Shown: piece by piece, positions 3,826 to 63,194 of the stretch | Layout: every line of letters begins with the position of its first letter | Numbering within the stretch: position 1 is the first letter of the stretch | Origin: Sugiyamaella lignohabitans | Taxonomy: Eukaryota > Ascomycota > Dipodascomycetes > Dipodascales > Trichomonascaceae | Length of the DNA stretch: 64,000 nt | Reading direction: 5' to 3' | NCBI RefSeq assembly: GCF_001640025.1 | Contig: NC_031673.1 | Span: 1,488,001 to 1,552,000, forward strand | Program-made: the position numbers and the translations under genes | The notes under the pieces: model-generated | Told to the model about the DNA's origin: nothing | Database searches by the model: none | Seen by the model: only the letters and a program-made list of their open reading frames with translations

Positions 3826-5994
3826 ATGTCTTTACCAATTGATTCGATAGACGCTGAAAAGCAACTCGACACAGTAACAAGGTCATCACGACCAACGTCG
3901 CCCTCGGATTTAGATTCTGACAGTTCCAAAGTCATTGGCTGCTTAGCATATGTGCCCGTTGTTCTGGGCCGTAATACTTCGAGATTCACTCGACTACTAC
4001 GACACAATGTCATTGGCAAGATCCTGCTGATACTAGGGTCGGGTTATTTCATCACCATTGCCATGCTGTACATGTTTTCTTCAGACGTGTACCCATCAAC
4101 CGACTCTCTCAAGGCATTGTTTGAAACAGGTTCTAACGCCAATTCAGCACCAGTCGAACCAAAACCAATTGAAGATGGTCGATTCGACCCTCGAGCCATT
4201 GTCACTGCTCTCAGAGCTACTTCGACTGACGAAGTATCGGTATTTGACTGGGGTGACTGGCTCGACCTGTCCGAAGTCAAGGGATATGCCGAGACGAGTG
4301 AGAGCTCTAAATTCAACTGGCTGTCCAAGACAGTCCCTCTTAGTGAAGTCAACTTTCCTCCACGTAGTAAAGCCGACGAGAAGGAACAGGCCTTTGTTGG
4401 TAAGCTTTATCTCGATAACTTTGCTCGTGTTCCTAGTCAAGTCATTATGGTTGGTGAAGCCAGAGCTACTTATGCTATGAGAGCCAAAGACGCCTCAAGA
4501 AACCACGTCGACTACTCTGAGCAACCAGAGCCTGAAGAGACTGAGCAACAGAAACAAGATCGTGAAAAGGGCGAGGAAGAAGACCGCAAACAAGAAGCAG
4601 AGATGAATAAGAAGAAGCAAGATCGTGAGAACCGTAGAAAGGAAGCCGAGGAAAAGAGAAAGAAGCTCGGCGAAGAGAAAAAGGAAGAGAAGAAAGAAGA
4701 CGAAACTGCTGACAAGACTAAACGTGACGACGAAACCGAGGTCGATCTTGAAAATATTCCTGTTGTGTCTCAAGTGCCCGATGCTCCAAGTCCCCGCATT
4801 ATCAACATGACTCCAGCTGAAATGGCTAAGGAAAAGGCTCGTGTGTTCCCTCCTCTGTTACCAGCACTTGCTAATGGTACTTTGGAAGACAAAGTTGCCG
4901 TCACCCTCAATGCCAGCATGTTCACACTCGATCTTGCTGCCTTGCAAAAAACCGGAGTCAACTCGTCACCACTGGAAATCAAGCACGCCGAGATGATTAA
5001 GAAAGCCCGTAAATATGTTGGCACCTCATCCAAGCACTTCTACGAGGTCTTGTTGACCAATGATCCATATGGACACGGTACTCACTACGACTGGAGATTT
5101 TTCAACCTGGTTCGTCTTGGAAACGAGCACGAAGCTGTCATGCACCATTTGATGCGAGCCTGGTCTATGTTTGCTGACCAAGAAGGCATTGCCTCGTGGA
5201 TTTCTCACGGTTCGCTTATTGGTTGGTACTGGAACGGTATTTCGATGCCATGGGATTCTGACAATGATGTCCAAATGCCTATTGTCGAGCTCGACCGATT
5301 TGCCCAGCTGTATAACGGCACCTTGGTCGTTGAAGACGAAAAGGAAGGTACTGGCAGATACTACATTGATGTTGGTCCCTGGTACGTGAGCCGTCATAAG
5401 GGCAATGGTCGCAACGTTATCGACGCTAGATTCATCGATATCCGATCCGGTATCTACATTGACATCACCGGTTTGGCCCAGACAGACCGACCTGGTCAGT
5501 TTGCATGCAAAAACAACCATTACTATCACCACGACTGGCTCAGTCCCATGCGTAGAACTCTTTACGAAGGTGCCGAAACCTATGTTCCCAACATGTACGA
5601 AGCAGTCCTGCGAGACGAATACAACAAGTACCGTCAATCTACATTCAAGGACTGGTCGTTCAACCGTGATTTGAGACTATGGGTCCCCACCAAGAAATGC
5701 GCCAAGTTCAACGTCCCATCGCTCAAATTCGACGAGAACAACGATCTCAACCTGTACGGAGCTTGTAACGACGCCAATATCTACAAAGAATATACCCTAA
5801 CAAAAGAAGTGTCACGTGAACACGCCAACGAGATGGATATCTACAATCGCATGGACATCGTCAACAAAAACGGCAAGAACATGTTTGTCGACACCGACGA
5901 GACGAGAGCTCTATTTGCAGACGAGTTCCGCGTCTACTACCCACCTCTGCGAGCCGATCCTGGCATTTCGGCCGATAAGTCCTGGCAGCATTAA
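3826..5994 (+). CDS. MNN4: MNN4-like LicD-domain protein, mannosylphosphorylation
   Basis: This 722-residue protein looks like a type II Golgi membrane protein. It has a cytoplasmic tail with a Ser/Thr/Pro-rich start, one hydrophobic segment at about 63-84, a highly charged Lys/Glu-rich stretch at about 229-308, and a LicD-type domain in the C-terminal half. The LicD signature is the acidic motif WDSDNDVQ at 476-483, after HGSLIGWYWNG. In S. cerevisiae Mnn4 promotes transfer of mannosylphosphate to N-glycans with Mnn6, and it also has a Lys/Glu-rich repeat. Here the charged stretch is internal, not C-terminal. LicD proteins act in phosphosugar transfer; whether this one is catalytic or regulatory is not shown. 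The ATG at 3826 is the first in frame. Other MNN4 paralogues are equally possible, so the symbol is a family assignment. Confidence 0.85.
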   Translation: MSLPIDSIDAEKQLDTVTRSSRPTSPSDLDSDSSKVIGCLAYVPVVLGRNTSRFTRLLRHNVIGKILLILGSGYFITIAMLYMFSSDVYPSTDSLKALFETGSNANSAPVEPKPIEDGRFDPRAIVTALRATSTDEVSVFDWGDWLDLSEVKGYAETSESSKFNWLSKTVPLSEVNFPPRSKADEKEQAFVGKLYLDNFARVPSQVIMVGEARATYAMRAKDASRNHVDYSEQPEPEETEQQKQDREKGEEEDRKQEAEMNKKKQDRENRRKEAEEKRKKLGEEKKEEKKEDETADKTKRDDETEVDLENIPVVSQVPDAPSPRIINMTPAEMAKEKARVFPPLLPALANGTLEDKVAVTLNASMFTLDLAALQKTGVNSSPLEIKHAEMIKKARKYVGTSSKHFYEVLLTNDPYGHGTHYDWRFFNLVRLGNEHEAVMHHLMRAWSMFADQEGIASWISHGSLIGWYWNGISMPWDSDNDVQMPIVELDRFAQLYNGTLVVEDEKEGTGRYYIDVGPWYVSRHKGNGRNVIDARFIDIRSGIYIDITGLAQTDRPGQFACKNNHYYHHDWLSPMRRTLYEGAETYVPNMYEAVLRDEYNKYRQSTFKDWSFNRDLRLWVPTKKCAKFNVPSLKFDENNDLNLYGACNDANIYKEYTLTKEVSREHANEMDIYNRMDIVNKNGKNMFVDTDETRALFADEFRVYYPPLRADPGISADKSWQH

Positions 5995-6180
5995 ACCCAT
6001 TCACCACCACAAACAAGCACATGAATAAAAGCACCTAATCACTCTCATTCACACATCTCTCTATTGCATCTCAGCACACACGCTGCTGCTCCACCCCTCA
6101 TCGTCATTACCATCTTCACAATACTTGTATTTGTATAATCAATGCATATTTATCTAGACTATTCTTGGGGGATCACACTT

Positions 6181-6392
6181 GCCTCCGGCGGCTGGGGCTC
6201 CGCCCCAGACCCTGGTTGCTCCTCTCGCTCCGCTCGAGTCGTTGGTGGCCTCGTGCCTCCGGCGGCTGGGGCCTCGCCCCAGACCCCACTGCTCCTCTCG
6301 CTGCGCTCGAGTCGGAGCGTGGACGGGTCGCGGGAATCTCCTGCGAAGCAGGAGCAACCAGGGTCTGGGGCGGAGCCCCAGCCGCCGGAGGC
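6181..6392. repeat. GC hairpin element, L-L-R cluster
   Basis: Two L arms (from 6181 and 6255) and one R arm of type 2. The second L arm has hairpin 1 with a CTC loop. It lies 186 bp after the MNN4-like stop codon. Confidence 0.9.
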
Positions 6393-7230
6393 AGGTGGGA
6401 GGGATGTATTTTTAGAAGAGTGGAACGCGGGATGACCTCTGCCAAGCAGGGGTCGCTTGGCACACTTAAACTCTGTTTCGTGCTAATAGTGCACGGTCCA
6501 AGCGCAGTCTCGACGGAGGTGAGAGAGTGATCCCTGAAAGAGATGCTGGTCGTGTTCAGGGTCGCTATGATGTCAATTGTTGGAGCAGAGACGTCATTTG
6601 GCTCACGGCGAAACGGGGGATATGTGGTTGATTGATCCCGAAACACCCGGGTGAATTGAAGCGAGAAGCTGTAATGGGAAGCCCAGTTCAAGCTACTCTG
6701 CTTTTTAGATTTATTTGCTTGTTTTTATATTTCTATTTTTATTGTAATTTTTATTCGGGTCTAATTGTAGGACTCCAGAATAACCGAGTCTTCGCCAATT
6801 CACTCAGACCAGAAAACTAACTTTCTTCAATATCCAGGTAGCAATTAAAAATGCCGGACGATATAATCAGCAGATAATTGAATAGATATCAGTAGGTTGA
6901 CTAACAATTTCAAGTGGTGTAGCCTCGAAGACTATCAAATAATATAGAAATAGTTACAAGATAATGCTTTAATGTTTACGATCGCAATGAGCTGAGCTTT
7001 AAAGAAAATAGAGTCAAATTGGTTATCTGACTATCTAACTTCTAGAGATTCATGGTTAATACAGCAGTTTGCTGAGTGACTCACTGATAATCAGATTTTG
7101 TTAACCTTCGAGTGGGTCTAATTTAATTCCTGTCTGGCAAGCCAGAAAATTCGAAGAACGGGGATTACAGTCCATTTTCCGCTTTCATGAGAATGTCACA
7201 TAGAACGAATTAAGAGAGGCAGGGGGAGAG

Positions 7231-7580: not shown

Positions 7581-7874
7581 ACGAAACTTGACGTTGGATG
7601 TAGTGTGGAGTGAGTCTTGATATCTCAGCCCCAAAGCCGTGGCACCCTTGATCCCACCAAATTCAGAGGTTCTAGCCAAGGTACTCGAGCTAATACCCCA
7701 TGCTCCACAGCAGTATATCGATCACACTGGCGGAAAGATAAATAGATCTATTAGAATTAGAATACACTCTATCAATACCGTCGACCCGTCACATCAACAC
7801 AAGTCATTTCTCCCCTCAGAAGCTTGCGAAGCAAGTACAACGGGGTCTGGGGCAGCGCCCCAGCCGCCGGAGGC
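7581..7874. repeat. Diverged direct duplication, copy B
   Basis: Second copy of the unit described at 7231-7552. It ends in the GC arm at 7822-7874, 15 bp from the UTR4 stop codon, so the unit abuts the 3' end of UTR4. Confidence 0.75.
7822..7874. repeat. GC hairpin element, single R arm
   Basis: GCTTGC-GAA-GCAAGT hairpin, then CTGGGGC-AGC-GCCCCAG and GCCGCCGGAGGC. It is 15 bp beyond the UTR4 stop, the closest element to a stop codon in the window. Confidence 0.9.
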
Positions 7875-8654: not shown

Positions 8655-8729
8655 TCTCCAGGTCCTCCTCCTCCTACTTCACCACTCCTCGATCAAAAAC
8701 CGCCTGTTATCAGGCCCAGACCGGGTTGT

Positions 8730-8884
8730 GCCTCCGGCGGCTGGGGCGCTGCCCCAGACCCCGTTGTGCTCGCTTCGCGAGCGCCGTTGGGAGTCCCCCC
8801 ACCCCCAAGCAAGCCCAGCCCGCCCGACGCAGCCAGCGAAGCGGGCACAACGGGGTCTGGGGCAGCGCCCCAGCCGCCGGAGGC
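8730..8884. repeat. GC hairpin element, L-R palindrome (type 3 arms)
   Basis: The L arm has hairpin 1 loop GCT and hairpin 2 GCTCGC-TTC-GCGAGC. The R arm has loop AGC and a decayed second hairpin (CCAGCGAAGCGGGC). It is 75 bp upstream of the UTR4 start codon. Confidence 0.9.
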
Positions 8885-9136
8885 GCACCCCCCAGGCCCG
8901 TGCAGGCTGCCAGCCCGTTCGGGTGACCCAGCCGGAAAATAGAGTTTGGGCGGGCACAGGGACCCTAGCCAAAACGGACCAACGGCGTTACAGGCGACAG
9001 ATGAAACTGTTGAGATGGCGGTTGGCTGGTGCCCTAAACAGCAGCCCACCCTCCTGCACCGATGGGCCAGCAGCCAGGCTGCACGTCGTCCAAGGGGGCC
9101 AGGCAGGTCTCGGGAGAGGGGGAGAGGTCTTTGCCT

Positions 9137-9275
9137 GCCTCCGGCGGCTGGGGCTCCGCCCCAGACCCTGGTTGCTCCTGCTTCGCAGGAGATTGTCCGC
9201 GACCGTCGATGCAGCCGACTCGAGCGTAGCGAGAGGAGCAGCGGGGTCTGGGGCGGAGCCCCAGCCGCCGGAGGC
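9137..9275. repeat. GC hairpin element, L-R palindrome
   Basis: L arm with type 2 second hairpin (loop TTC), R arm with type 1 (CTCGAGCGTAGCGAGAG). Confidence 0.92.
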
Positions 9276-9665
9276 ACACGCCCCGGACCCAAGTCTGGGC
9301 CCTTGCGCTCGCAGTGGAGAAGTACCAGGTCGGTGGAACCCGCCGGCCAGGATTTAGTTCACCAGAATCTTAATTACGGGACAGACGAGACCAACGGCGG
9401 TCTGGTGGGCCAGCGGGAGACGAGCAGCCGGTTGGCTGGCTGGCTGGGGCGGCGGGTTCGAGGGCCTGGGCCAGGCCCATGTCTCCGATCTCGCGCTAGC
9501 ACTGGCAGGCGACGCGCGCGTCCACAGGCGGCAACGACGTCATGCGCGTGCACAAAAGAGATCAGGTACTGCAACCTAAAACAGCAATCGACATAAGGAA
9601 ATTAATGTTAATCAGGAACAACAAATGGACCAGATCGTCGATCACAGGAGGGACCAGTGGGGCAT

Positions 9666-9824
9666 GCCTCCGGCGGCTGGGGCTCCGCCCCAGACCCCGC
9701 TGCTCCGCCCCAGACCCCGCTGCTCCTCTCGCTACGCTCGAGTCGGTTACGTCCACGGTCCCGAGCAATCTCCTGCGAAGCAGGAGCAACCAGGGTCTGG
9801 GGCGGAGCCCCAGCCGCCGGAGGC
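9666..9824. repeat. GC hairpin element with 20-bp internal duplication
   Basis: L-R palindrome in which the 20-bp unit CCGCCCCAGACCCCGCTGCT of the L arm occurs twice in tandem. The R arm is type 2. The same unit, in reverse complement, is triplicated at 31745-31921. Confidence 0.9.
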
Positions 9825-10056
9825 ACACCCCCACCCCGACGTACCCCCGCGAGAGAGACGCGAAGCAGGGGCGCTCGCAGAACAGAGACATTGTTGGGTG
9901 AAACAGACGACGCCGGTCGAGGCCGGGCCGGTGGTATCAGGCAGAACCGCCTTGAACTCGCCGCAGGTCCGGCGGGAATGAGAACGGGACCACCTGCACC
10001 GAACATTTTTTTTACAACTCCGTCGCAAATAATATTTTTTTCGGGGACGGGGTGCT

Positions 10057-10195
10057 GCCTCCGGCGGCTGGGGCTCCGCCCCAGACCCTGGTTGCTCCTG
10101 CTTCGCAGGAGATTGCCCGGGACCGTGGACATAACCGACTCGAGCGTAGCGAGAGGAGCAGCGGGGTCTGGGGCGGAGCCCCAGCCGCCGGAGGC
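10057..10195. repeat. GC hairpin element, L-R palindrome
   Basis: L arm type 2, R arm type 1 with middle base T. Layout and spacer length match the copy at 9137-9275. Confidence 0.92.
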
Positions 10196-10324
10196 AGGCC
10201 CCACAGGCCCCCAACAGACGGAGGGCTGTCAATTTAGAGTTGGGGCCCGTTGCCAGGAGCGGTGTTCTTAGCATGAGCTAAAATGAATTAAGTTAAGCTT
10301 AGCTCGGCTGAAAGATGGGCTGCT

Positions 10325-10468
10325 GCCTCCGGCGGCTGGGGCGTTGCCCCAGACCCCATTGCTCCTGCTTCGCAGGAGAGGATTGGGCTTGCCTGGCCAT
10401 CCCCCGGCCGACTCGAGCGAAGCGAGAGGAGCAATGGGGTCTGGGGCAACGCCCCAGCCGCCGGAGGC
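10325..10468. repeat. GC hairpin element, L-R palindrome
   Basis: Hairpin 1 loops are GTT in the L arm and AAC in the R arm, which are complementary to each other. The L arm is type 2, the R arm type 1. Confidence 0.92.
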
Positions 10469-10576
10469 ACACCCACGCTGCCCATATTTTCTGCCTCTTG
10501 CTTTTTACAGCCAGAACCCACCGGCTTGGCGAGCCATCCTCCCCCCGGACGCTGCCACCCAGCACGGTTCTAGCCC

Positions 10577-10630
10577 CTCCTGCGAAGCAGGAGCCACGGG
10601 GTCTGGGGCGGAGCCCCAGCCGCCGGAGGC
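10577..10630. repeat. GC hairpin element, single R arm (type 2)
   Basis: CTCCTGC-GAA-GCAGGAG followed by CTGGGGC-GGA-GCCCCAG and GCCGCCGGAGGC. Confidence 0.9.
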
Positions 10631-11700
10631 CAGCTGCCAAACCCCCCAGTAGCGCCCCCTCCAAGGCCTGGGCCTCGAGAGTGTTGGGGTGGTGATGGGT
10701 ATTTGTTTTTATTTTCTGTTTCTTTTCTTTTCCTATTTAATCTCACTGCTGCAAATGCAAGGGGGTTTGCTTTTTGTGATAGACGTATAAAATCCTAATT
10801 ACCCACCGTAGCGCAGATCTGGTGCGTCAGTTATGGGAAATTTTTTCATCTGCTTTCATGCTGCCCTATTTCGTGTGTCGACTGCGTCAGCGGAAGGGAC
10901 CACAGTGTTTGGTTTTTTCTTCCGGTTAGTAGTTTGACTCAGATAACAGCGGAGAAGTGGCCTGTCGTGCCTCGACCGAGGTCCCAGAGTCTCCCCCAGT
11001 CCCCGGGTCGCGCTGCTGCTGCTGCTGCTTCTGCTGGCACTAGGCCGGGGTGCGTCTATTGTCCGTAAATCAGTGTTCCAGACAGGACAATGGTAATGGC
11101 ATTCACGCCGGCTGCGCTGACTGCACGAGTTTCTCTATTCACGACAACAGCGTCCACCTGATAGAATTAGTTAGTCGCGCTAGCCTCGATGGCCATCGGG
11201 CTGCTATTGTTGCTGCCGCTGCCGCTGCTGCTGCTGCTGTTGTTGTTCCTGCTGCTGGAGCTACTGGCCAAGCGATGAGGGGTACCTCGAGCAGCACTGC
11301 TGTGCTCTGCTGTGCCCTGCTGACTGTCTCAGAGCCAGTAAAGCTTGGGCCTGATTTTGATCTCCGTTTTGCGAATGAGATGTTTTATTTTGCGCTGTTT
11401 TACTTTTATTTTGATTTTGGTTGGATGTTTTACTTTTACTTTTATCTTTTATTTTTTTATATTTTTCTGTTGTGTTTTGATTATCAACAACAATCAACAG
11501 TCGCTCAATTGCCTGCTCGCTGCCTGCCTGAAACCCGCTGTACATGACCGTTTTGTTACCTGATGCAGCAGCGAGCGAGACAGCCTGCAACGGCTAGGCC
11601 GGCCCCCTGTTTCACCTGCCCCGCTAGCCACCCCCTCCATTTAAACTTTAGCGCGAGCCCAGGCCCCAGGCCGGGTTTCTCAGGCGGGAGCGGGGGTGCT

Positions 11701-11837
11701 GCCTCCGGCGGCTGGGGCTACGCCCCAGACCCCACAGCTCCTCTCGCTGCGCTCGAGTCGGTGCGAACGGTCCCCAGCCAATCTCCTGCGAAGCAGGAGC
11801 AACCAGGGTCTGGGGCGGAGCCCCAGCCGCCGGAGGC
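11701..11837. repeat. GC hairpin element, L-R palindrome
   Basis: The L arm has hairpin 1 loop TAC and type 1 second hairpin; the R arm is type 2. The spacer is about 20 bp. Confidence 0.92.
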
Positions 11838-12842
11838 AGGCAGCACCCCCGCTCCGGCCCCCAGCCCGCCCACGTGGATCCGCGAGGGGAGCAAAACCCG
11901 GATCTGGGGCGAAATACGGTTATTAGAGTTGGGCCCCGAGCTCAGGTGGGCCGGCGGCTGGTACGTATAGTAAAGTTAGCACTGGCACCGACCGGTAGTA
12001 ATTTAATTGTGAGACAGCAGCAGCAGAAGCAGTAGGTAGAGGGGGCTATGAAGCGAGGGTCGCGAGCGAGCGGGGTGTTTGGCTTGGTCTGAGACAGAGC
12101 TTATTGGCGGTTTATAGGTGTCTACGAGGTGTTGCGGCGGTTCTAGAGGTCGTCGGAGGTGGTGTTAGTAAGAGCGAATGTGTTTAAAATGGTAGTGCAA
12201 TTGCTGGGAGCGAGTGGTTGGTGGCCGGAGCGGGCAGGCTCGAGCCAACGGTTCAGCCAACGGTTCTGTCATGTCACATCACTCATGTCAACGTCAATGT
12301 CAACGTCAGGCGCCAGGAGAGTGGGTTGAGGCGGCGGCGGCCGGAGGGTTGGTATTTTTGTTGGTCCCAACCTTGGTAGGCCGTACTGCTGGCGGTCGTA
12401 CCGGCGGGGAGAGGGACGGAACGGACTAAGCTGTGATTCCTGGGTTGGGCTGGAACGTGACCCGCACCGAAGACAACTGGACTCTGGCGGGGGGGCCTCT
12501 AGTCTGGACTGGGTTGCTGCACAGGGAATACGCCGGCGTTGAACCGTTCAGTTGGGTTTAATCCCGGATAGGCTTGGTCATACGGTCGTTCCTGTAGCGG
12601 GCAGGTGCTGGGTGCATGGCATAATCGGGGCCAATGTAAGGGGGCCCAGTTTCGGCATTGTGGCTTGATTTTTACGGGTGGTGCTGCAGGCCTGGACATG
12701 CAATGCTTTCCACAGACGTTGGGGAACGTCCCGTACCGGCCAACGCCAACGGGCGGGCCAGCAGCAGCGGCAGACGACCTGATCTTGACAGGCAGCCGGC
12801 TACTGCCTGATCGATGATTTCCGGGGCTGAGATGGGGGGTGT

Positions 12843-12974
12843 GCCTCCGGCGGCTGGGCTCCGCCCAGACCTGGTTGTGCTCGCTTCGCGAGCTGCGAGG
12901 GGGTCCCCAAGCTTCGACTCGAGCGTAGCGAGAGGAGCCGGGGGGTCTGGGGCGCAGCCCCAGCCGCCGGAGGC
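12843..12974. repeat. GC hairpin element with shortened hairpin 1
   Basis: In the L arm hairpin 1 is CTGGGC-TCC-GCCCAG: one pair shorter than usual, with one base lost from each side, so pairing is kept. The second hairpin is type 3. The R arm has the full-length stem and type 1. Confidence 0.9.
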
Positions 12975-13319
12975 GCACCGGGTGTTGAGAGAGGGAGGTG
13001 AGTGGTGGTGCAAAGCTAGTGAGCCAGGCTGCTGACCAGGCTCGTGACCTGAGGACTGCGACAGGTGATCAGTGCTGTTGATTCAGGCGATTCGAGGCCA
13101 TAGAGCGACCCAACCCAACAATCCACACATGTCCAATGATTCACCCAATCAATAAACCACCTACGACGCAATCAATCAATGAATGAATCAAACAATCAAT
13201 GGCCCATAGGCCAATGAACGACATACAATAGCATCAAAAGCTCGATGATCGGGGTGGGGGCATTGGTTGGCAGGACACGCACAAAACAAAACTGCAAACC
13301 TGCGGACCATCTCGACGCC

Positions 13320-13379
13320 CGACTCGAGCGAAGCGAGAGGAGCAGCGGGGTCTGGGGCGGAGCCCCAGCCGCCGGAGGC
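13320..13379. repeat. GC hairpin element, single R arm (type 1)
   Basis: CGACTCGAG arm followed by CTGGGGC-GGA-GCCCCAG and GCCGCCGGAGGC. No L partner is within 340 bp. Confidence 0.9.
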
Positions 13380-13850
13380 AGGCCCCCTTCCCCTCCAGAT
13401 ATCCCCCCACCCGGCCCCAGGGGAGGCTGGCAGCTGGGTACTCGGGCAGCGTTTGACACACCACAACGTTTCTTTTTGTAAAAGATTGCAGAGATGGTCG
13501 TTTCTTTTTCGTACTTTTTCCGTTATGAGCTTAAACGTTACTTTTAGTGGGTGGATGTCCGTCCGATTTGAAGGGGTGCTTGTTTGGTGCAGTAACCCTC
13601 GAGACCCTAGCTAAGCACCGGCCAGCGGGCACTAGCTTCCAGTAGGAGCGGTGGCAGCAGCAGCGCGACCAACGGTAGCTGGAGAGTAGTAGTAGTACTG
13701 ACCGGCAGGAGGACTGGCAGGAGGGCCAGCAGCAGCAATGCAGAAAGAACAGAAGAAGAAACGCCAGCAGCAGCAGCAGTAGCCCGGCAGGTCAAGCAAG
13801 ACAAACGGGCTTGTTTTTTTTTTTTATTTTTTTTTTCAGCCCTGTATACC

Positions 13851-16867: not shown

Positions 16868-17079
16868 TCACCCCACCTCTCAGTCCACAATCGTAATATC
16901 AAATGTACATTAGCCAAACACCCACCCACTCACACACTCACTAATCTAACCTTCGACGGGCCCAGCCGGCTCACGCACACACCTTTTTATGTATAATGCA
17001 CTATATCAGCTCCTGGCTATATAATAATTTATTATCCCTCAGCGGTTTCTAGATACCATACTTCCGGGACGGGCGATCT

Positions 17080-17219
17080 GCCTCCGGCGGCTGGGGCTCC
17101 GCCCCAGACCCTGGTTGCTCCTCTCGCTGTGCTCGAGTCGTTGCTAGGGGGCCCCCCGGCCGTCTCCTGCGAAGCAGGAGCAACCAGGGTCTGGGGCGGA
17201 GCCCCAGCCGCCGGAGGCA
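17080..17219. repeat. GC hairpin element, L-R palindrome
   Basis: L arm type 1 (CTCTCGCTGTGCTCGAG, one base off consensus), R arm type 2. It fills most of the space between the Myb gene stop (212 bp away) and the RAD7 start (133 bp away). Confidence 0.92.
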
Positions 17220-19269: not shown

Positions 19270-19299
19270 TTTATATATCCGCTCGTTTGACCTGATCCT

Positions 19300-48587: not shown

Positions 48588-48747
48588 GCCTCCGGCGGCT
48601 GGGGCTGCGCCCCAGACCCCCCGGCTCCTCTCGCTCCGCTCGAGTCGGGCGTCGGGATCCCCAAACTGACTCATTTCCCCCCAGTAACGACTCGAGCGAA
48701 GCGAGAGGAGCCGGGGGGTCTGGGGCGCAGCCCCAGCCGCCGGAGGC
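48588..48747. repeat. GC hairpin element, L-R palindrome between convergent genes
   Basis: Both arms are type 1, with matching hairpin 1 loops TGC and GCA. It is 155 bp after the SSD1 stop and 23 bp from the MMS21 stop. Confidence 0.93.
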
Positions 48748-48770
48748 ACGGGGGAACACAATAAATACGG

Positions 48771-55007: not shown

Positions 55008-55214
55008 CCTCGTCTCCTCACTCACCCCACCCCACGTCACCTCACATCGCCTCACCTCACCTCATTCACCTCAAATCACATCACTCCGCACCTGCTACCT
55101 AATATCACCATCCACCCCTGCTGTTCTCTCAGCTGTATCTATTACAATTTTCTTGCCTTATAAAGAAGCTGTATATGAAATATATCCCGCGAAAGACCCT
55201 CTGGTGCCCCCGCT

Positions 55215-55342
55215 GCCTCCGGCGGCCGGGCTCTGCCCGGACCCGTGGCTCCTCTCGCTCCGCTCGAGTCGGTTACGGGGGTGCTGCCTCCGGCGGCCGG
55301 GCTCCGCCCGGACCCGTGGCTCCTCTCGCTTCGCTCGAGTCG
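55215..55342. repeat. Two variant GC L arms in tandem (CCGGGC subfamily)
   Basis: Both have hairpin 1 changed to CCGGGC-TCT-GCCCGG or CCGGGC-TCC-GCCCGG, followed by ACCCGTGGCTCC and a type 1 second hairpin. The stem changed on both sides together. Confidence 0.93.
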
Positions 55343-55742
55343 GGCGTCGGGCGGTGACCACGACGGGGGTTGTGGGGATTGAGTTCGGCTCATGAACCTG
55401 TCTTATATAATTAGAGTAACCATCAAATTAAAACACCTGGTAAAATGAAATACCAGTTGAAATATCCACACGTGGGCCCTATCGATGAAGGTGGATATCG
55501 GAAAAAGTAGAATTACGGACCGGACACCAGCCTGATGTCCGCTGGACAAATGCCACTCGCAGGGAAAACAGAAACTCGAGATTCAGGGCCATTCCCGGTC
55601 AAATCACAAACAGAGTTTGACCTCCACTCCCGTAAGAACCCCTCGAGCCCCCACAGCAGACTCGAGCCGAGCGAAAGGAGCAGCGAGTCCAGAGTCATGA
55701 ACCCAGTTCACGAACCCAGATCCGAGCCAAACCCCCCAAAAC

Positions 55743-55913
55743 CGACTCGAGCGAAGCGAGAGGAGCAACGGGTCCGGGCAGAGCCCGGCCGCCGGAGGCA
55801 GCAGGTCCACCAGAAGCCCCTACAACCCATTCAGATACCATGAGTCCCCCCAGTACCGACTCGAGCGAAGCGAGAGGAGCCACGGGTCCGGGCAGAGCCC
55901 GGCCGCCGGAGGC
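55743..55913. repeat. Two variant GC R arms in tandem (CCGGGC subfamily)
   Basis: Mirror images of the variant L arms at 55215-55342, both with CCGGGC-AGA-GCCCGG. They end 114 bp from the COX13 stop. A degenerate copy of the type 1 hairpin precedes them at about 55660. Confidence 0.93.
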
Positions 55914-56027
55914 AGCAGGGGCCGTCTACGGATCAGAAGAGCAGAAACAGAATCTGTTGGAGTAGATGTTATAAGTTATGATGAAGATGAAGATGCGAAG
56001 CACGGTAGCAAGGTGCGAGGTGCGTGC

Positions 56028-56444: not shown

Positions 56445-56703
56445 TTTCTGTTTCTTTTTTTGGTGTTGTTTTTCCTAGAAAAAGCGCTTCTAACAATCAA
56501 TCGAAAAACAAACAATGTCGTCGATTTGGCAACTGTCAGTCGGTTCGTGATGAGCTGATGATTTTGATTTTGTCGCTCTCGCTCTCCATGCCCTGCCATT
56601 GGGTAATTCGAGCCCTAACCCGCGAGGGACGAGCGTTTCTTCTCAGGTGATAATATCTGCAGGGTCTGCTGTGGACATGCATGACTGCCAGGGGGTCGGG
56701 GGT

Positions 56704-56826
56704 GCCTCCGGCGGCTGGGGCTCCGCCCCAGACCCTGGTGGCTCCTCTCGCTTCGCTCGAGTCGTTGCGTCGACGGTTCCAGCAGTTTTCTGTGAAGCAG
56801 GAGGAGATACAGGGTCTGAGGTAGAG
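56704..56826. repeat. GC hairpin element, L arm plus heavily decayed R arm
   Basis: The L arm is intact, type 1. The R arm is barely readable (TTCTGTGAAGCAGGAGGAGA, then CAGGGTCTGAGGTAGAG), showing mutational decay of one half only. Confidence 0.88.
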
Positions 56827-57369
56827 TGCACTGTATGAACAGTTTATGGCCATGGTATAAATATTGAGATATTGATAACCTGTTATATGGTCATTCTGAA
56901 GTTGTATTGAGCTTCTACGGGTAATAGCAGTCTGCTTGGCCCCATCAGTCACCCGTTGAAATTTTGCCAAATCAGCTCTGCTTCCTTTGACCTGACCAAT
57001 CCAGTCTGTAACTGAACTAGCTGTTGAAAAATGTGTAGTGCGACTGGTACAAAGAACTGTGAAAGTTGGTACCAGTTGTTGAATGAGCTAGAGTATTCAA
57101 AGGTCGTTCCCAGGTGACTCAGAGATGAACCTGATCTGAACCCATGTATGGGAGAATATGTTCACACGCATCTCGACCAGAAGAACTCGAAATACCCATG
57201 ATAAAACAAAAAGATTTGAAGTTATGACCATTAAGTACAGCAGCTCCTGTCTTTTGTCTTGAGATTCTTGTCAAGAGCTCTACAAGGTTGGAGAGATTCT
57301 CACTGCTTATAGACTAGGGATTGTTTCTATGTTATGCAAAGTTGAAGAAAGATCTGGAGCTAGAGCCGT

Positions 57370-57850
57370 AAGAGGGCTGATAAGTACCTGATAAAAAGTT
57401 GATAAAAAATCTAAAAAGAAGTTGATATAAAGCAATACAACTGAGGAAGTAGCTGATAATGAATCTAGTGAGGTGGGTTAAAAGGAGCTGGAAAGCTGAG
57501 AAGGCAATTGGTGAACTTTTGGCAAGAGAATATGGAACTGATAGAGAAGCTTGTGAAGTGGGTTTAAAAGCTGATAGTGCAAGTGATCAAGCGACTGTTA
57601 AAACTGATAGAGTAGCTGATTAATGGAGTTGATAAAGAGTATGATAGAGCAGCTGATAGTGAAGCTGGTGAGGTGCGTCAAAGGAGCTGGAAAGGAGCAA
57701 CTGATAAGAGCTGATGGAGTATCTGATGGAATAGTTGATGGAGTAGCTGATGGAATAGCTGATGGAGTAGCTGATGCAATAGCTGATGCAATAGCTGATA
57801 AGCAACTAATAAAGAAGCAATAAAAGAGCTGAAACAGCTGACGGAAAGCT
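57370..57850. repeat. Minisatellite based on GCTGATGGARTA
   Basis: The core at about 57700-57800 is a 12-bp unit (GATGGAGTAGCT / GATGGAATAGCT), eight or more times. It is embedded in a longer degenerate pattern containing GCTGATA, and GTGAGGTGGGTTAAAAGGAG-like blocks recur at about 57470 and 57667. It is open in one frame but has a repetitive Ile/Ala/Asp translation. Confidence 0.85.
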
Positions 57851-58759
57851 GATGAAACTCAGGACCCCATCAAACTGCTTAAAATGTCGCTTGAAGAAGA
57901 ATATTTGAACTCAAAATCCAGGGAGAGAGCCATGAGATCACACAGTACTCACCGTAGCTGAAGTGCAACCGGTAGTCCACATTTAGCCTACCGTTTCATA
58001 AATGCAGAGTGCCATGTATAAACTAAGAAGTCCATACTGTCTATTTCTAAGCTCGCTCAAATGTGGATAAAAAAATACCCTCCTCGTTATTTGACGATTG
58101 GATCCCACAGAACAGTCTGGTATTTCTGCCCATCTAATAAATGCTAGCCAAAGAATTTTTTTTCCTTGTACCCTGGTTTCTGCTTCTACGACATCAATTA
58201 ATGTCAACCTCTCCTCGAGGGCTTGGTAAATCCACTCCAGTACTGAAACATGTTAGACTTCGCAGCGAGAAAGTATGTGCCCCCAGAGAATAGAATGAGC
58301 TTGTCTAGTAATCTTTTTTGATCTACTGGTAACTCCTAGGTAATCAGTAATTCAAAGCTGGTATGAACTACAGAAATAAAATATTCCTATAATCTACGAA
58401 AACCACATCAATTCGTGACAGTAAAAAATATAAAGTTGATAATCCTTGTTTTATTCTTTAGATCTGCGCCTTTATCAATCTCTTCAACGAGGTGAAAGAA
58501 ACCAGTTCTTGTAATTATACGGCCTGGATATTTCTACACCTCTTTCTTTCCAGTTCATCCACACTCGACATTTATAAAATAGGAAAGGGTCGTAACTCAA
58601 CCAACGACCCTGACTGAAGCTTTACATGACATGACATCCATATGGAACCGAATATGGATCTGAATATGGCCCTGTCCAAACTCTGAATTTACAGAACTAA
58701 AAAAATTGCAAACACATGCTGATGTGAAAATAGACCCCTCGCGCTACGGGTGCCGCCAT

Positions 58760-58896
58760 GCCTCCGGCGGCTGGGGCTTCGCCCCAGACCCCGCTGCTCC
58801 TCTCGCTGCGCTCGAGTCGTTTCCGTCGACGGTCCCAGCAATCTCCTGCGAAGCAGGAGCCAGGGGGTCTGGGGCACAGCCCCAGCCGCCGGAGGC
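58760..58896. repeat. GC hairpin element, L-R palindrome
   Basis: L arm with hairpin 1 loop TTC and type 1 hairpin; R arm type 2 with loop ACA. Confidence 0.92.
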
Positions 58897-58951
58897 ATCA
58901 CGCAAGACCGTATGCAGGGCCAGTGCATATCCTGTAAAGACCCTGCATACA

Positions 58952-59095
58952 GTGCCTCCAGCGGCAGGGTACACACCCCAGACCCCACCACCTCTCATCT
59001 CGCTCGACTCACTCCCCCATCCCGCCCTCAACCCCCCAAACGCTCGCGAAGCGAGCACAACCAGGGTCTGGGGCGGAGCCCCAGCCGCCGGAGGC
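58952..59095. repeat. GC hairpin element, degenerate L arm plus R arm (type 3)
   Basis: The L arm is decayed (GCCTCCAGCGGCAGGGTACA, then CACCCCAGACCCC). The R arm is intact: GCTCGC-GAA-GCGAGC, CTGGGGC-GGA-GCCCCAG. Confidence 0.85.
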
Positions 59096-59412
59096 ACACC
59101 CCGGCCGCCCCCATTGCGGCCCCTCGCCGCAGGCGGCTGTATACCAGCCAATCAGAGCAGGGGATGGCGTTGGGAGCTGTGTAGCCAGTCAAAGCCCGGG
59201 TACGCGTGGGAGAGGGAAAAATATTGTGGAATTTGCGAGGGACCCTAGCCCTGGCAGGAACCGGGACCAAGAAATTCTCACATATTTTCGCCGGTGATAC
59301 ACACCTTTCCACTCTTTTTTCTTTCTACACATTGTCTTGTTGTCTCCGTTTCTTGACACTCCGTTAGCAACAAAAAAGTCAACTCCAAAAGAAGAAACAC
59401 AAGAATAAAAAA

Positions 59413-61984
59413 ATGTTTCGATCTGTTTTGCAACAATCGACTCGTCGTGCTGGCCTTGCTGCTGCCAGAAGAATTGCTCCTGTAAGTTGTTGAACCTTCG
59501 TTCGGTTTGTCTGGTTTCACGAACCAAACAATTCGTCAATTGAATCATCATTTTCTTCATTCTGCTTGGTTTTTTCTATTGTGGATATAAGAATTGACTG
59601 GTTATTTCATTCGTTAGCTTTGATTTCGGGGAAGAGGGTTTTTGCTAACAATTCTGTTCAGGTCTCTCGTGTGAGCGCTCGTGCCTACGCCAAGGCCGCC
59701 CCTACTGAGGTCTCTTCCATCCTCGAGGAGCGTATCCGTGGTGTCTCTGGTGAGGCCAACCTCAACGAGACTGGTCGTGTTCTTTCCATTGGGTAAGTTT
59801 TATTTTGGTTTTGGTTTTTCCAGGATCTCGCTGGCGGTTCTTGTCTGGTGTTCACCACCTGCTCACTCAACCGACCTCCAACAACCACCTCAAACCACAA
59901 CTTCCAAACACAAAACTTGGTTTCTGGTTTGTCCATCCACTCAATCATCCTCTGCCACCACCCAATCGCCTAAACTCCCGCTTCAAGCCCGACTTTTCAC
60001 CCCCCTTCGTCCCGTCGCTCCGCTCTCTCTCCCGCCAATTTTGCAGCCCTAACCCACGGGACACCTGGTTAGGGTGTCTGATTGGCTGCTGCGAGGTCGG
60101 AGGGCTAGGGTCGGTCGGGGTCAGGGGGGATGGGGTCGTGCCTCCGGCGGCTGGGGCTCCGCCCCAGACCCTGGTTGTGCTCGCTTCGCGAGCGGTGGGG
60201 GGAGAAGAGGGTGTGTCGGGGGTGTTTGGTGCTGTTTTGGGGTTGTTGGTGGGCGGGGTCGGGTGTTGCTTGGGGTTGGACCGGGTGAGAGTGGGTGGGT
60301 GCTGGCAGTGATTGCAGTTGGTTTTGGGTTGGTTGTGGGTCGGATGTGGATTCTGGTTGCGAGATTGGACTGCGGTTCGACTCCGGTTTTCAAATTTTCA
60401 CCGTCCACCCCCGAACTGCCCCCCGTCCCCACGCCCGACTCGAGCGAAGCGAGAGGAGCCGCGGGGTCTGGGGCGCAGCCCCAGCCGCCGGAGGCAGGCA
60501 CACACCCCCACTCCACCCCACGCGACTCCCCCTGAAAACAAGACTAACAGAGGAATAGTGATGGTGTCGCCCGTGTTTTTGGTTTGAACAACATCCAAGC
60601 CGAGGAGCTTGTCGAGTTTGCCTCTGGTGTCAAGGGTATGGCTCTTAATTTGGAAGCTGGTCAAGTCGGTATTGTGCTTTTCGGATCTGACCGTCTTGTC
60701 AAGGAGGGAGAGACTGTCAAGAGAACCGGTTCTATTGTCGATGTTCCAGTTGGACCCGAGCTTTTGGGCCGTGTTGTTGATGCTCTTGGTAACCCCATTG
60801 ATGGTAAGGGACCTATTGCTGCTAAGGAGAGATACCGTGCTCAATTGAAGGCTCCAGGTATTTTGCCCCGTCGTTCGGTTCACGAGCCCATGCAAACTGG
60901 TCTTAAGGCCGTCGATGCTCTTGTGCCCATTGGTCGTGGTCAGCGTGAGTTGATTATTGGAGATCGTCAAACTGGTAAGACTGCTATTGCCATTGATACC
61001 ATTCTTAACCAAAAGCCTCTTAATGCTGGTTCTGATGAGTCCAAGAAGTTGTACTGTGTTTACGTTGCTGTTGGTCAAAAGAGATCGACTGTTGCTCAAT
61101 TGGCCCAAACTTTGGAAGCCAATGACGCTCTTAAGTACTCTATCATTGTTGCTGCCACTGCTTCTGAGGCCGCTCCTTTGCAATACATTGCTCCCTTCAC
61201 TGCTTGTGCCATGGGTGAATGGTTCAGAGACAATGGTAAGCACGCTCTTATCATCTACGACGATTTGTCCAAGCAAGCCGTTGCTTACAGACAAATGTCT
61301 CTTTTGTTGAGACGTCCTCCTGGTCGTGAGGCTTATCCTGGTGATGTTTTCTACTTGCACTCTCGTTTGTTGGAGCGTGCTGCTAAGATGTCTGATAAGT
61401 TTGGATCTGGTTCCTTGACTGCTTTGCCCGTCATTGAGACCCAAGGTGGTGATGTGTCTGCTTATATCCCTACCAACGTCATTTCCATTACTGACGGACA
61501 AATCTTCTTGGAGGCCGAATTGTTCTACAAGGGTATTAGACCCGCTATTAACGTCGGTCTGTCGGTTTCCCGTGTCGGATCCGCTGCCCAAGTCAAGGCT
61601 GTTAAGCAAGTCGCCGGTTCCCTCAAGCTTTTCTTGGCTCAATACCGTGAAGTCGCTGCTTTTGCCCAATTCGGTTCTGATTTGGATGCCTCGACCAAGC
61701 AAACCTTGGCCCGTGGTGAGCGTTTGACCCAATTGCTCACTCAAAAGCAATACTCTCCCTTGTCTGCTGAAGAGCAAGCTCCTCTCATCTTTGCCGGTGT
61801 TAACGGTTACCTCGATAACATCCCCGTCTCCGAGATTGCCCGTTTCGAGACCGAGTTCCTCTCTCACCTCAAGACCAACGAGGCCGACCTCCTCTCCACC
61901 ATCTCCACCAAGGGTGAGTTCACCCCCGAGTTGCTCGAGAAGCTCAAGTCCGTCACTGCCTCGTTCGCCGGCTCTTTCAACTAA
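59413..61984 (+). CDS. ATP1: ATP synthase F1 alpha subunit, three exons
   Basis: Exons are 59413-59481, 59662-59792 and 60559-61984, joined in frame to 541 residues (S. cerevisiae Atp1: 545). Donors are GTAAGT in both introns, and CTAAC precedes both acceptors. Intron 1 is 180 nt; intron 2 is 766 nt and contains two GC arms. The first 30 or so residues are a basic, Ala/Arg-rich mitochondrial presequence. The P-loop GDRQTGKT is at 201-208. The conserved [14 protein letters not shown] segment lies near 340, and its leucine is encoded by CTG. The alpha subunit alternates with beta in the F1 head of mitochondrial ATP synthase and binds nucleotide without catalysis. Codons in exon 3 are strongly biased, as expected for a highly expressed gene. 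Confidence 0.97.
60140..60193. repeat. GC hairpin element, L arm in ATP1 intron 2 (type 3)
   Basis: L arm with GCTCGC-TTC-GCGAGC second hairpin, 347 bp into the intron. Confidence 0.92.
60436..60495. repeat. GC hairpin element, R arm in ATP1 intron 2 (type 1)
   Basis: R arm with hairpin 1 loop GCA, 63 bp before the acceptor. Its second hairpin is a different type from the L arm in the same intron. Confidence 0.92.
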
Positions 61985-62086
61985 GCCACCCCGCTGGTTT
62001 TAGCATCTCTCTTCGTACATTAAATAAAAAATACACGAACTGACTTTACTCTCTCCTTTCTCCGGGTTTACCGGTGTCCGGGGTCT

Positions 62087-62404
62087 GCCTCCGGCGGCTG
62101 GGGCTCTGCCCCAGACCCCGTGGCTCGTCTCGCTCCGCTCGACTCGGTCGTTAACGGCGCCAGGAGACTCTCCTGCGCGAAGCAGGAGCTACGGGGTCTG
62201 GGTCCCTCACTGGGATTACCGGGGATCGCGTTCTTATTTTCCCGGAGAATCTCCTGCGAAGCAGGAACTACGGGGTCTGGGGCAGAGCCGCCGGAGGCAT
62301 GTTCCCCTCACCGGACTGACCGGGGTCTGGGATTTTTTGGCCCGGAAAATCTCCTGCGAAGCAGGAGCCACGGGGTCTGGGGCAGAGCCCCAGCCGCCGG
62401 AGGC
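62087..62404. repeat. GC hairpin cluster between convergent ATP1 and MPO1
   Basis: One L arm with the rare GCTCGTCTCG / CTCGACTCG variant is followed by three R arms of type 2. The first R arm (62163-62205) has lost hairpin 1 and its end, the second (62250-62298) lacks one half of hairpin 1, and the third (62350-62404) is intact. It starts 102 bp after the ATP1 stop and ends 36 bp from the MPO1 stop. Confidence 0.9.
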
Positions 62405-62440
62405 AGGCCCAGTCACCGGAGTTAATCCCGCCAGGGGTGT

Positions 62441-63194
62441 TTATTGGTACTTTTTGCCGTGGAAGGCCTCGAGTTCGGGCCGGATTTGTCGGTCGATGTT
62501 GTCGATAACCGATTTGCGGAATCCCAGGAAATAGGCCACTTCGAAGACTACGAAGAAGGGGGCTAGGACGAGTGCCTGGACAAGGTTGTCGAGAAGAGCT
62601 GGGGCTCGGTGCTCAAATGCTCCGTGACCCACGAATTGGGCCAGCCACGACACTACATGGATACCAACAGCGATTTTGGTGGCAGTGGCTCCCTCGGATT
62701 GCATGATATCAGTGAGTTTGACGGTGGTCAGCACTAGCAATGGGATCGAGGGAAGTCCGAATGTCACGTCCAAAAGCGCATAGAACACGCTGTATCCGAT
62801 GGAGGTGGCCACTCCAAGATTGAAATATTTGGCATACTCAATTGGCAGTGACGGGAACACCGACTCCAGCACACTCACAGGAACTCGAGTCTTCGTTCCA
62901 AGCGCCAGCGCCGTTAGAAGAATCAGGGGAATACACAAAACATGGATCAACACGTTGACATGGTTGTCTAAACGTCTCTGTTAGTTATTCGTCTGTTCTT
63001 TTTCTTTTTCTTTTTCTCTTCAATCCTTTTGTTCTTTCAAATGACACGACCCGTTTCTATTGACGACTTGGATGTCGAATCACAGCTTGTGAACCGTGTT
63101 CAATTGGCAGATTCTGGCTCAAGGACCGGTCAGACCACTACTTACAATGGTACTTTCTGTAGAAAGCAAGCTCTTTCTCGAGATTGAGGGTCAT
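62441..63194 (-). CDS. MPO1: Mpo1-like 2-hydroxy fatty acid dioxygenase, two exons
   Basis: Exons are 63146-63194 and 62441-62967, joined in frame to 191 residues. The join restores FYRKYHYNHVNVLIHVLCIP, which contains the family's YHxNxxNxxxH metal-binding block; neither exon carries it alone. The donor is GTAAGT, the acceptor TTTAG with CTAAC upstream, and the intron is 178 nt. About four hydrophobic segments follow. The second histidine block reads IHVVSWLAQFVGHGAFEHRA (VGHG and a following His), then PALLDNLVQALVLAPFFV. Mpo1 (DUF962) removes one carbon from 2-hydroxy fatty acids in the ER during phytosphingosine breakdown, using Fe(II). S. cerevisiae Mpo1 is 174 residues. The start ATG at 63194 is the first codon of the short first exon. 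Confidence 0.92.

What the first reader, a model, noticed from the sequence alone, without database searches (positions are those of the whole stretch)
5994..62441. GC hairpin elements sit just beyond stop codons of nearly every gene
Gap from stop to nearest element: UTR4 15 bp, MMS21 23, RPR2 27, RAD7 30, TAF5 33, MPO1 36, PRE6 37, PPR-like 37, GPC1 40, CTR3 45, RPL7 60, HSF1 91, ATP1 102, COX13 114, SSD1 155, MNN4-like 186, CDC55 207, Myb 212. Only the small gene at 28297 is an exception. One also follows the tRNA by 22 bp. Either the elements act in 3' end formation or transcript stability, or they insert preferentially at 3' ends.
Basis: partly seen in the sequence, partly recalled or inferred. 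Interest (0 to 1): 0.87.

Follow-up and report, generated by a model that had tools for sequence, protein, structure and literature searches.

The report
Yeast hairpin repeats at gene ends
A yeast genome carries thousands of copies of a short hairpin-forming DNA repeat that often sits just past the stop codons of genes, and the same core sequence is repeated near gene ends in some unrelated bacteria, so it may be a hairpin repeat shared between bacteria and a eukaryote.

Summary
All 18 genes confirmed in the window have a GC-hairpin element 14-211 bp past the stop. In 324 kb, 25 of 89 gene 3' ends have one within 50 bp; random re-placement gives 12.8 (0 of 2000 shuffles). The excess peaks at 25-59 bp. 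5' ends show none overall.

It is not general: 37 of 40 stops in element-dense, GC-rich blocks have an element within 250 bp, 14 of 29 in intermediate, 2 of 30 in sparse ones.

The unit is an arm: 18-nt core, triloop hairpin, second hairpin. Arms often pair tail-to-tail as ~140-bp A+B dimers. The genome has 5,732 exact cores. No target-site duplication was seen.

Unexpectedly, the core is also a repeat in two bacterial genomes of one order, and its 12-nt head in Desulfovibrionaceae; 24 of 33 bacterial arms follow a stop closely.

Best reading: a eukaryotic counterpart of bacterial REP/BIME repeats, which spreads and inserts into, or is retained in, the zone past stop codons. A 3'-end function is possible, unproven. 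REP/RAYT membership fails two tests.

The parts
6180..6393 (.). arms ++- after MNN4-like gene (stop 5994, 185 bp)
7818..7874 (-). single arm, 14 bp past UTR4 stop (7890, minus)
8729..13380 (.). 16 arms (mostly tail-to-tail dimers) in the 6.3-kb divergent intergenic between UTR4 and the Myb gene; not at a known 3' end
17079..17219 (.). A/B dimer, 211 bp past Myb-gene stop (16867)
19299..19362 (+). single A arm, 29 bp past RAD7 stop (19269)
19920..20144 (-). three minus arms; the nearest is 90 bp past HSF1 stop (20235, minus)
25804..25982 (.). A-type dimer (left arm one change from type A) shared by convergent RPL7 (59 bp) and GPC1 (39 bp)
27336..27399 (+). single A arm 36 bp upstream of GPC1 start: an example at a 5' end, head facing the gene
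29776..29838 (-). arm 36 bp past PRE6 stop (29875, minus); the arm 29144-29204 carries the same rare hairpin-2 variant
32788..32927 (.). B/A dimer 26 bp past RPR2 stop (32761)
35615..35679 (+). single A arm 32 bp past TAF5 stop (35582)
36251..36397 (-). two B arms, the nearer 36 bp past the PPR-gene stop (36434, minus); TAF5 and PPR converge, 851 bp apart, and each stop has its own arm
39134..39272 (.). B/A dimer, 139 bp, 44 bp past CTR3 stop (39317, minus); type example
48587..48748 (.). A/A dimer between convergent SSD1 (154 bp) and MMS21 (22 bp)
55214..55343 (+). two arms with the CCGGGC...GCCCGG stem (both stem sides changed), 206 bp past CDC55 stop (55007)
55740..55914 (-). two arms with the CCGGGC...GCCCGG stem, 113 bp past COX13 stop (56028, minus)
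62086..62148 (+). single arm 101 bp past ATP1 stop (61984)
62346..62405 (-). B arm 35 bp past MPO1 stop (62441, minus); damaged arms at 62171-62202 and 62248-62299
63580..63703 (.). dimer whose right arm (63660-63703) has lost its head, 23 bp from the tRNA gene at 63727-63825
41248..44321 (.). nine further arms in the CTR3-SSD1 divergent intergenic, not at a confirmed 3' end
56703..60496 (.). six further arms in the COX13-ATP1 divergent intergenic

Best explanation
A dispersed, hairpin-forming DNA repeat of a yeast nuclear genome, built and arranged like bacterial REP/BIME repeats. The unit ('arm', ~60 nt) is a constant head (GCCTCCGGCGGC), a 7-bp GC hairpin with a 3-nt loop, then a second hairpin of type A, B or C. 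Arms commonly occur as tail-to-tail A+B dimers of ~140 bp with a variable spacer. Shown: copy number, anatomy, no target-site duplication in 58 dimers, patchy GC-linked density, and excess 25-59 bp past stop codons in the sample. Inferred: the repeat spreads by copying of the hairpin (no mobilising enzyme identified), and it inserts into, or survives best in, the short stretch past the stop codon where the transcript is processed. Copies there may be kept as two-way 3' boundaries (a block to polymerase or to 3'-to-5' RNA decay), but that step is unproven.
For: Copy number: 2860 + 2872 exact cores, 0 in the reversed control; 3631 + 3670 with up to 3 mismatches, control 6 + 6. Anatomy: 228 arms in 324 kb, 67 tail-to-tail dimers with gap up to 150 bp; 44 of the 67 are A+B, 3 A+A, 1 B+B, 19 involve other or unclassified types. 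Dimer length 139-141 in 24 of 58; no clear excess of direct repeats at the ends over re-paired flanks. Stem kept under change: 248 genome matches to the Y...R stem pattern, and the 100 that were listed are all compensated, T...A or C...G (read by eye). Decayed copies exist: 51 of 228 lack the exact core. Patchiness: 37 of 40 stops in dense, 14 of 29 in intermediate, 2 of 30 in sparse surroundings (the classes are defined by arm density, so part of the contrast is built in); density tracks GC3, rho 0.55, 92 genes, and intergenic GC, rho 0.77, 31 bins. 3' excess. Each stop of a long convergent pair can have its own arm (TAF5/PPR 32 and 36 bp, RAD7/HSF1 29 and 90, ATP1/MPO1 101 and 35). REP literature describes intergenic palindromes with a constant tag, opposite-orientation dimers, and location mostly downstream of coding regions and between convergent or unidirectional ORFs (PMC3733652, PMC8266576: passages seen).
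Against: No mobilising enzyme was found: no Y1 transposase in this genome; the Helitron search was uninformative because its control rang nowhere; DDE transposases were not searched. No empty site could be compared. Near-stop copies being almost all intact (37 of 38), while their spacers vary, could mean selection for a 3' function rather than insertion bias. The exact head of bacterial repeats in a yeast is not explained by a purely yeast-internal origin.
Confidence: 0.55

Rival explanations
1. Functional 3'-end element: the arm, read head first from the gene, promotes transcription termination or poly(A)-site choice, or protects the transcript end, and dimers serve two convergent genes.
For: Peak at 25-59 bp past stops, 25 observed against 8.7 expected, 0 of 2000 shuffles; at starts 5 against 3.2. 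Near-stop arms intact in 37 of 38, against 82 of 119 far ones, Fisher P = 1.4e-4; 30 of 30 against 74 of 104 in dense surroundings. Near-stop spacers carry 97 edits over 308 consensus bases although 13 of the 14 dimers have both cores exact. 20 of 22 single arms within 100 bp of a gene edge have the head towards the gene. Elements per kb are highest in convergent intergenics: 1.24, tandem 0.79, divergent 0.64 (earlier element set). 24 of 33 bacterial arms lie 1-48 bp past an open frame's stop. In S. cerevisiae, AT-rich inverted repeats are enriched at poly(A) sites (PMC6420913, abstract).
Against: 28 of 30 stops in sparse surroundings have none within 250 bp. 119 of 228 arms are far from called gene edges, and by number more dimers lie in divergent (26) than in tandem (23) or convergent (10) intergenics. 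In tandem intergenics single arms face a 5' end (18) more often than a 3' end (9). The head-towards-gene count near edges is partly forced by geometry if single arms are remnants of dimers. The far arm of near-stop dimers is just as intact (15 of 16), and their spacers are slightly closer to consensus (P = 0.057), which fits youth. Stretches between stop and element carry A/T hexamers (15 of 26, against 13 of 34 in genes without an element), so ordinary signals are not replaced.
Confidence: 0.3
2. MITE: a non-autonomous DNA transposon with ~43-bp terminal inverted repeats moved by a DDE transposase, near genes because such sites are open.
For: Recurrent ~140-bp A/B unit with inverted ends; subfamilies and decayed copies.
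Against: No clear target-site duplication at the offsets tested in 58 dimers. 94 of 228 arms stand alone. Stems change in compensated fashion, which ordinary terminal repeats need not do. DDE transposases and autonomous copies were not sought.
Confidence: 0.1
3. Source of small hairpin RNAs for RNA interference: the dimer RNA folds into one long stem.
For: Dimer 39134-39272 folds as RNA at -128.2 kcal/mol against a mean of -63.9 for shuffles.
Against: No Piwi domain found in the genome (read exon by exon, control rang in 1 of 14 genomes). 94 of 228 arms have no close partner.
Confidence: 0.02

Closest known systems
Bacterial REP / BIME repeats (GTAG- and CGTC-tagged palindromes; PMC3733652, PMC8266576, passages seen)
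   Same: Short intergenic GC hairpins in high copy, constant tag at one end, opposite-orientation dimers with variable linker, mostly downstream of coding regions.
   Different: Nuclear genome of a yeast; 12-nt tag GCCTCCGGCGGC instead of GTAG or CGTC; two hairpins per unit; no Y1 (TnpA-REP) transposase found here.
   Same: Identical head; in G002 and G176 the identical 18-nt core, mostly followed by a closing stem and GACCCC; tail-to-tail pairs (98-128 bp in 7 IMG/VR contigs); near stop codons.
   Different: In the G002/G176-like copies the stem is usually GGGGCC-loop-GGCCCC with no clear second hairpin; in the three Desulfovibrionaceae loci read, stems vary; fewer copies per genome; yeast hairpin-2 type A had no match in viral contigs, the only public collection searched for it.
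Neisseria/Pasteurellaceae uptake sequences paired as terminators (PMC1852404, passages seen)
   Same: A short constant word, repeated in inverted pairs after genes, forming hairpins.
   Different: Uptake words are 9-11 nt, the pair itself forms the hairpin of a terminator; uptake is bacterial.
Mitochondrial GC clusters and double-hairpin elements (PMC2800124, PMC5499181, passages seen)
   Same: GC-rich, one or two hairpins, dispersed in intergenic DNA, thought mobile.
   Different: Those are mitochondrial; these lie among nuclear genes.
AT-rich inverted repeats at S. cerevisiae poly(A) sites (PMC6420913, abstract)
   Same: Inverted repeats concentrated at gene 3' ends in a yeast.
   Different: Those are AT- or A/T-tract-rich and tied to the poly(A) signal, not a GC-rich repeat family.

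Membership tests
REP/BIME (REP with RAYT transposase) | High-copy intergenic palindrome with a constant tag at one end | tested here: met
   5,732 exact cores; a perfect stem of 4 bp or more follows 182 of 194 copies of the 11-nt GCCTCCGGCGG in 324 kb
REP/BIME (REP with RAYT transposase) | GTAG or CGTC tag | tested here: not met
   the constant side reads GCCTCCGGCGGC in the yeast and in the bacterial copies read
REP/BIME (REP with RAYT transposase) | Opposite-orientation dimers with variable linker | tested here: met
   67 dimers, spacers variable
REP/BIME (REP with RAYT transposase) | Cognate Y1 transposase in the genome | tested here: not met
   none in the yeast; none in G002 and G176, two in G001, not examined for flanking arms
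MITE (DDE transposon derivative) | Target-site duplication | tested here: not met
   direct repeats not clearly above re-paired flanks in 58 dimers
MITE (DDE transposon derivative) | Terminal inverted repeats on a defined unit | tested here: met
   A/B dimer of ~140 bp
MITE (DDE transposon derivative) | Autonomous relative with the same ends | not tested
   would need the whole genome in hand
3'-end functional element | Position fixed relative to gene ends | tested here: met
   excess at 25-59 bp past stops; but 119 of 228 arms are elsewhere
3'-end functional element | Present at genes generally | tested here: not met
   2 of 30 stops in sparse surroundings have one within 250 bp
3'-end functional element | Effect on RNA 3' ends or stability | not testable with these tools
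   needs RNA data
Rfam families | Match at gathering score | tested here: not met
   only the tRNA in the window; in 5 bacterial or IMG/VR loci only a c-di-GMP riboswitch

The most novel reading that the evidence does not exclude
One hairpin repeat lineage crosses domains: a head-plus-hairpin repeat native to bacteria (frequent in Desulfovibrionaceae, patchy in the order of the Acetobacteraceae genome) entered a yeast nucleus, multiplied to more than five thousand copies, and took the same place there, just past stop codons, where it now serves as a two-way gene boundary. This would be the first REP-like system of a eukaryotic nucleus (from recall; I made no exhaustive search), and a repeat that keeps its sequence and its genomic address across domains.
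Probability: 0.25. Interest if true: 0.93.

Novelty: new variant of a known kind. Interest (0 to 1): 0.8.

Why it matters
REP-like repeats are described from bacteria, and mobile GC hairpins of fungi from mitochondria. Here a yeast nuclear genome holds several thousand, with a sharp preferred address past stop codons. That offers a natural experiment: within one genome, blocks with and without the element can be compared for 3' end formation, read-through between convergent genes and mRNA life. If the bacterial match is homology, it is a non-coding repeat that moved between domains and multiplied; if it is convergence, some shared constraint selects the same 12-nt head beside a hairpin at gene ends, which would be as surprising.

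Tried and rejected
Rfam match for the elements: none. Hairpin-RNA interference: no Piwi domain. RAYT/REP membership: no Y1 transposase in the yeast, G002 or G176. MITE membership: no target-site duplication. Head-towards-gene orientation as proof of RNA-level function: given up, because a dimer always presents heads outwards, single arms may be remnants, and in tandem intergenics single arms face 5' ends more often (18) than 3' ends (9). Intactness near stops as proof of selection: weakened by the equally intact far arms and by slightly younger-looking spacers. Stable GNA-type DNA triloops (name and property recalled): the H1 loop reads GGA on one strand in 133 of 199 copies, but copies are related, so not counted as evidence. 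Serine-rich paralogues with element-like 3' tails on C3 did not look like transposon genes by eye; no family search was made. Protein search with the PPR protein gave nothing. Plasmid searches with a yeast arm and with a bacterial dimer gave only weak or no matches. Longest-ORF calling in the GC-rich bacterial loci put 23 of 40 heads inside an ORF (my count); I judged most of these ORFs spurious and used the stop-distance test instead. Literature: the core as literal string gave 0 papers; the head gave 5 papers, unrelated by title and not opened; searches on Sugiyamaella with genome, repetitive or repeats showed no report of the element in the listings seen. These searches cover open-licence PMC only. 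The genome paper of the likely species is not held. An early regex scan missed some arms (for example 41506 and 52351); rest on that set, the final counts on the HMM set.

Full report
WHERE. The window is C4:1488001-1552000 of a 15.93-Mb genome in 4 contigs. Size and four contigs fit Sugiyamaella lignohabitans CBS10342 (16.0 Mb, 4 chromosomes, 50% coding, 5% of genes split; PMC5499181, passages seen). The species is an inference: no sequence test was made.

THE OBSERVATION. The one 'exception', the ORF at 28297, has no Pfam match and overlaps an arm, so it is probably no gene.

IS IT CHANCE. I fetched 260 kb from three other places (C1:100001-300000, C2 and C3:1000001-1030000) and called genes as ATG-started ORFs with a dicodon score, adding four window genes by hand. 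Arms were found with an HMM built from 177 exact-core arms (230 hits; 228 arms after merging fragments). The 115 elements (arms within 200 bp clustered) were re-placed at random within their own 93 intergenic regions 2000 times. Within 50 bp of a stop: 25 of 89 3' edges, 12.8 expected, 0 of 2000. At 25-59 bp: 25, 8.7 expected, 0 of 2000. Below 25 bp there is no excess (5, 6.3 expected). At 5' edges: 5 of 97 within 50 bp, 4.5 expected; 20 within 200 bp, 17.1 expected. In the window alone 5' edges do show an excess within 200 bp (9 of 16, 5.2 expected), which the rest of the sample does not share (11 of 81, 11.8 expected). Outside the window 3' edges: 15 of 71 within 50 bp, 8.8 expected, 5 of 2000; at 25-59 bp 16, 6.0 expected, 0 of 2000. 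On an earlier element set, forbidding placement within 300 bp of starts left 10.7 expected against 23 of 88 observed. So the 3' bias is real in this sample, sharp, and not just promoter avoidance.

NOT EVERY GENE. Density is patchy: 10-kb bins run from 0 to 20 arms. The first 100 forward cores of C1 leave 21 of 59 10-kb bins empty, against 10.8 for a Poisson spread. With 12 or more arms within 7.5 kb, 37 of 40 stops have an arm within 250 bp; with 4-11, 14 of 29; with fewer than 4, 2 of 30 (the classes are set by arm density, so part of the contrast is built in). Dense blocks are GC-rich, also at third codon positions (rho 0.55, 92 genes) and in intergenic DNA with elements masked (rho 0.77, 31 bins). 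Of 228 arms, 119 lie more than 300 bp from any called gene edge; some may border genes that I missed. Elements per kb: convergent 1.24, tandem 0.79, divergent 0.64 (earlier set); by number, dimers lie in divergent 26, tandem 23 and convergent 10.

ANATOMY. Read from the head: T, GCCTCCGGCGGC, stem TGGGGC, three-base loop, stem GCCCCA, GACCC, a short variable stretch, then hairpin 2: type A (CTCTCGCTNCGCTCGAGTCG), B (CTCCTGC-TTC-GCAGGAG) or C (GCTCGC-TTC-GCGAGC). Outside the head the strand is G-rich (G 0.70 at position -6). The 18-nt core is exact in 177 of 228 arms; others range from one change to heavy decay. Other stem forms have both sides changed, CTGGGC...GCCCAG and CCGGGC...GCCCGG. In the whole genome 248 places fit the mixed pattern; the 100 listed are all paired (read by eye). 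This may be few events inherited by many copies.

DIMERS. 67 arm pairs are tail to tail with a gap of at most 150 bp. 44 are A with B, 3 A with A, 1 B with B, 19 involve other or unclassified types. 24 of 58 examined dimers are 139-141 bp long. Their flanks show no clear target-site duplication (for 4 bases at the ends 1, 1.1 expected), but more inverted matches than re-paired flanks (6, 1.8 expected): the palindrome tends to run on into the G- and C-rich flanks. A dimer folds as one stem, -128 kcal/mol as RNA. 94 arms are single. Of 87 between two called genes, 60 have the nearest gene edge on the head side; of the 22 within 100 bp of an edge, 20 have the head towards it (15 at 3' and 5 at 5' ends); in tandem intergenics the head faces a 5' end in 18 and a 3' end in 9. 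The near-edge count would follow from geometry if single arms are remnants of dimers. That does not explain long convergent intergenics in which each stop has its own arm: TAF5 and PPR (32 and 36 bp), RAD7 and HSF1 (29 and 90), ATP1 and MPO1 (101 and 35).

INTACTNESS. Arms within 100 bp of a stop match one of five core forms exactly in 37 of 38; arms more than 300 bp from all called edges in 82 of 119 (P = 1.4e-4), and in dense surroundings 30 of 30 against 74 of 104. Against selection on the near arm alone: in 16 near-stop dimers the far arm is as often intact (15) as the near one (15); of the other 51 dimers 30 have both intact. Spacers of near-stop dimers are somewhat closer to the consensus (median 5.5 against 8 edits; 14 and 27 dimers; P = 0.057). 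Both youth and constraint fit.

THE BACTERIAL MATCH. Scanning one genome for each of 84,980 prokaryote species with the core, loop and GCCCCAGACC gave 4 contigs: Solidesulfovibrio aerotolerans, a Desulfovibrionaceae MAG, a Desulfovibrio MAG and an Acetobacteraceae MAG. In the two genomes searched whole, they belong to repeats: the 12-nt head occurs 318 times in the Solidesulfovibrio genome G001 (reversed control 1) and 416 times in the Acetobacteraceae genome G002 (control 19). In 59 genomes of G001's family (Desulfovibrionaceae by the record's name) 51 have at least one match; several are in clear excess (for example 298 against 6 in G226), others are near their control. The exact 18-mer is in 2 of 200 genomes of G002's order (Acetobacterales by recall), 343 and 44 times; in the 80 genomes of that order searched for the 12-mer, most other than G002 are near their control. 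In the three Desulfovibrionaceae loci read, stems vary but pair, and a second hairpin follows the TGGGGC form. Of 22 IMG/VR contigs with the 18-mer, 7 hold a tail-to-tail pair of 98-128 bp with the same outer ends (L036 and L050 are near copies of each other); many of the rest look like coding sequence. Of 33 distinct bacterial arms from 22 loci, 24 have an open frame of at least 120 codons ending within 60 bp before the head, 18 of these within 19 bp, against 13.6% for random positions; an opposite-strand frame ends within 60 bp of a point behind the arm's hairpin in 7. A plain longest-ORF call placed 23 of 40 heads inside ORFs, most of them spurious in my judgement. So the same core tends to follow genes there too, in a small sample. 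The IMG/VR contigs were only scanned for the motif, open frames and Rfam families.

HOMOLOGY OR CONVERGENCE. The shared letters (head, stem, GACCC) are too many for chance in one comparison. But stem halves are not independent, GC bias raises the odds, and the search space was large. By rough reckoning (inference) convergence is unlikely but not excluded. No spacer similarity was noticed by eye, and hairpin 2 of type A has no match in viral contigs.

MECHANISM. I favour a spreading repeat with an insertion or retention bias past stop codons (0.55). Patchiness, decayed copies, subfamilies and many copies away from gene ends fit a repeat; the sharp 25-59 bp peak says the site is set by something at the 3' end, such as the processing or termination zone. 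A selected 3'-end function is the main rival (0.3). Both may be true: inserted there first, kept later. The likely actions would be a block to RNA polymerase II or to 3' decay. Known parallels are hairpins downstream of bacterial genes as terminators (PMC1852404, PMC13155455, passages seen) and AT-rich inverted repeats at S. cerevisiae poly(A) sites (PMC6420913, abstract).

WHAT IT IS NOT. Not a REP/RAYT member by tag or enzyme, not a typical MITE, not an Rfam family at gathering score, and not tied to Argonaute as far as the Piwi search can tell. It works like a REP/BIME in layout; membership is not claimed.

Noticed in passing
   Followed up: partly
C1:100001-300000 and window: GC-rich and GC-poor blocks alternate on a scale of tens of kb, with third-codon-position GC following element density: an isochore-like pattern in a yeast.
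   Followed up: partly
flanks of 58 dimers in the 324-kb sample: Flanks just outside the two heads are complementary to each other more often than re-paired flanks, so the palindrome tends to extend beyond the conserved ends.
   Followed up: no
window 31839-31905 and 9683-9705: 20-bp tandem duplications inside an arm, as if hairpins slipped during copying.
   Followed up: no
C1:221401-221496 (L013): Two arms share one central hairpin, both heads lost and replaced by the hairpin-2 sides: a rearranged dimer.
   Followed up: no
window 63535-63568: A run of about 30 C next to an arm.
   Followed up: no
   Followed up: partly
window 8625-14977: 6.3-kb divergent intergenic with 16 arms and no confirmed gene; perhaps unannotated non-coding or spliced genes.
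   Followed up: no
L026 (C3:1020001-1030000): Two related serine-rich proteins with nearly the same 3' flank holding an altered head (TTGCCTCCGGCAAACGAG...).
   Followed up: no
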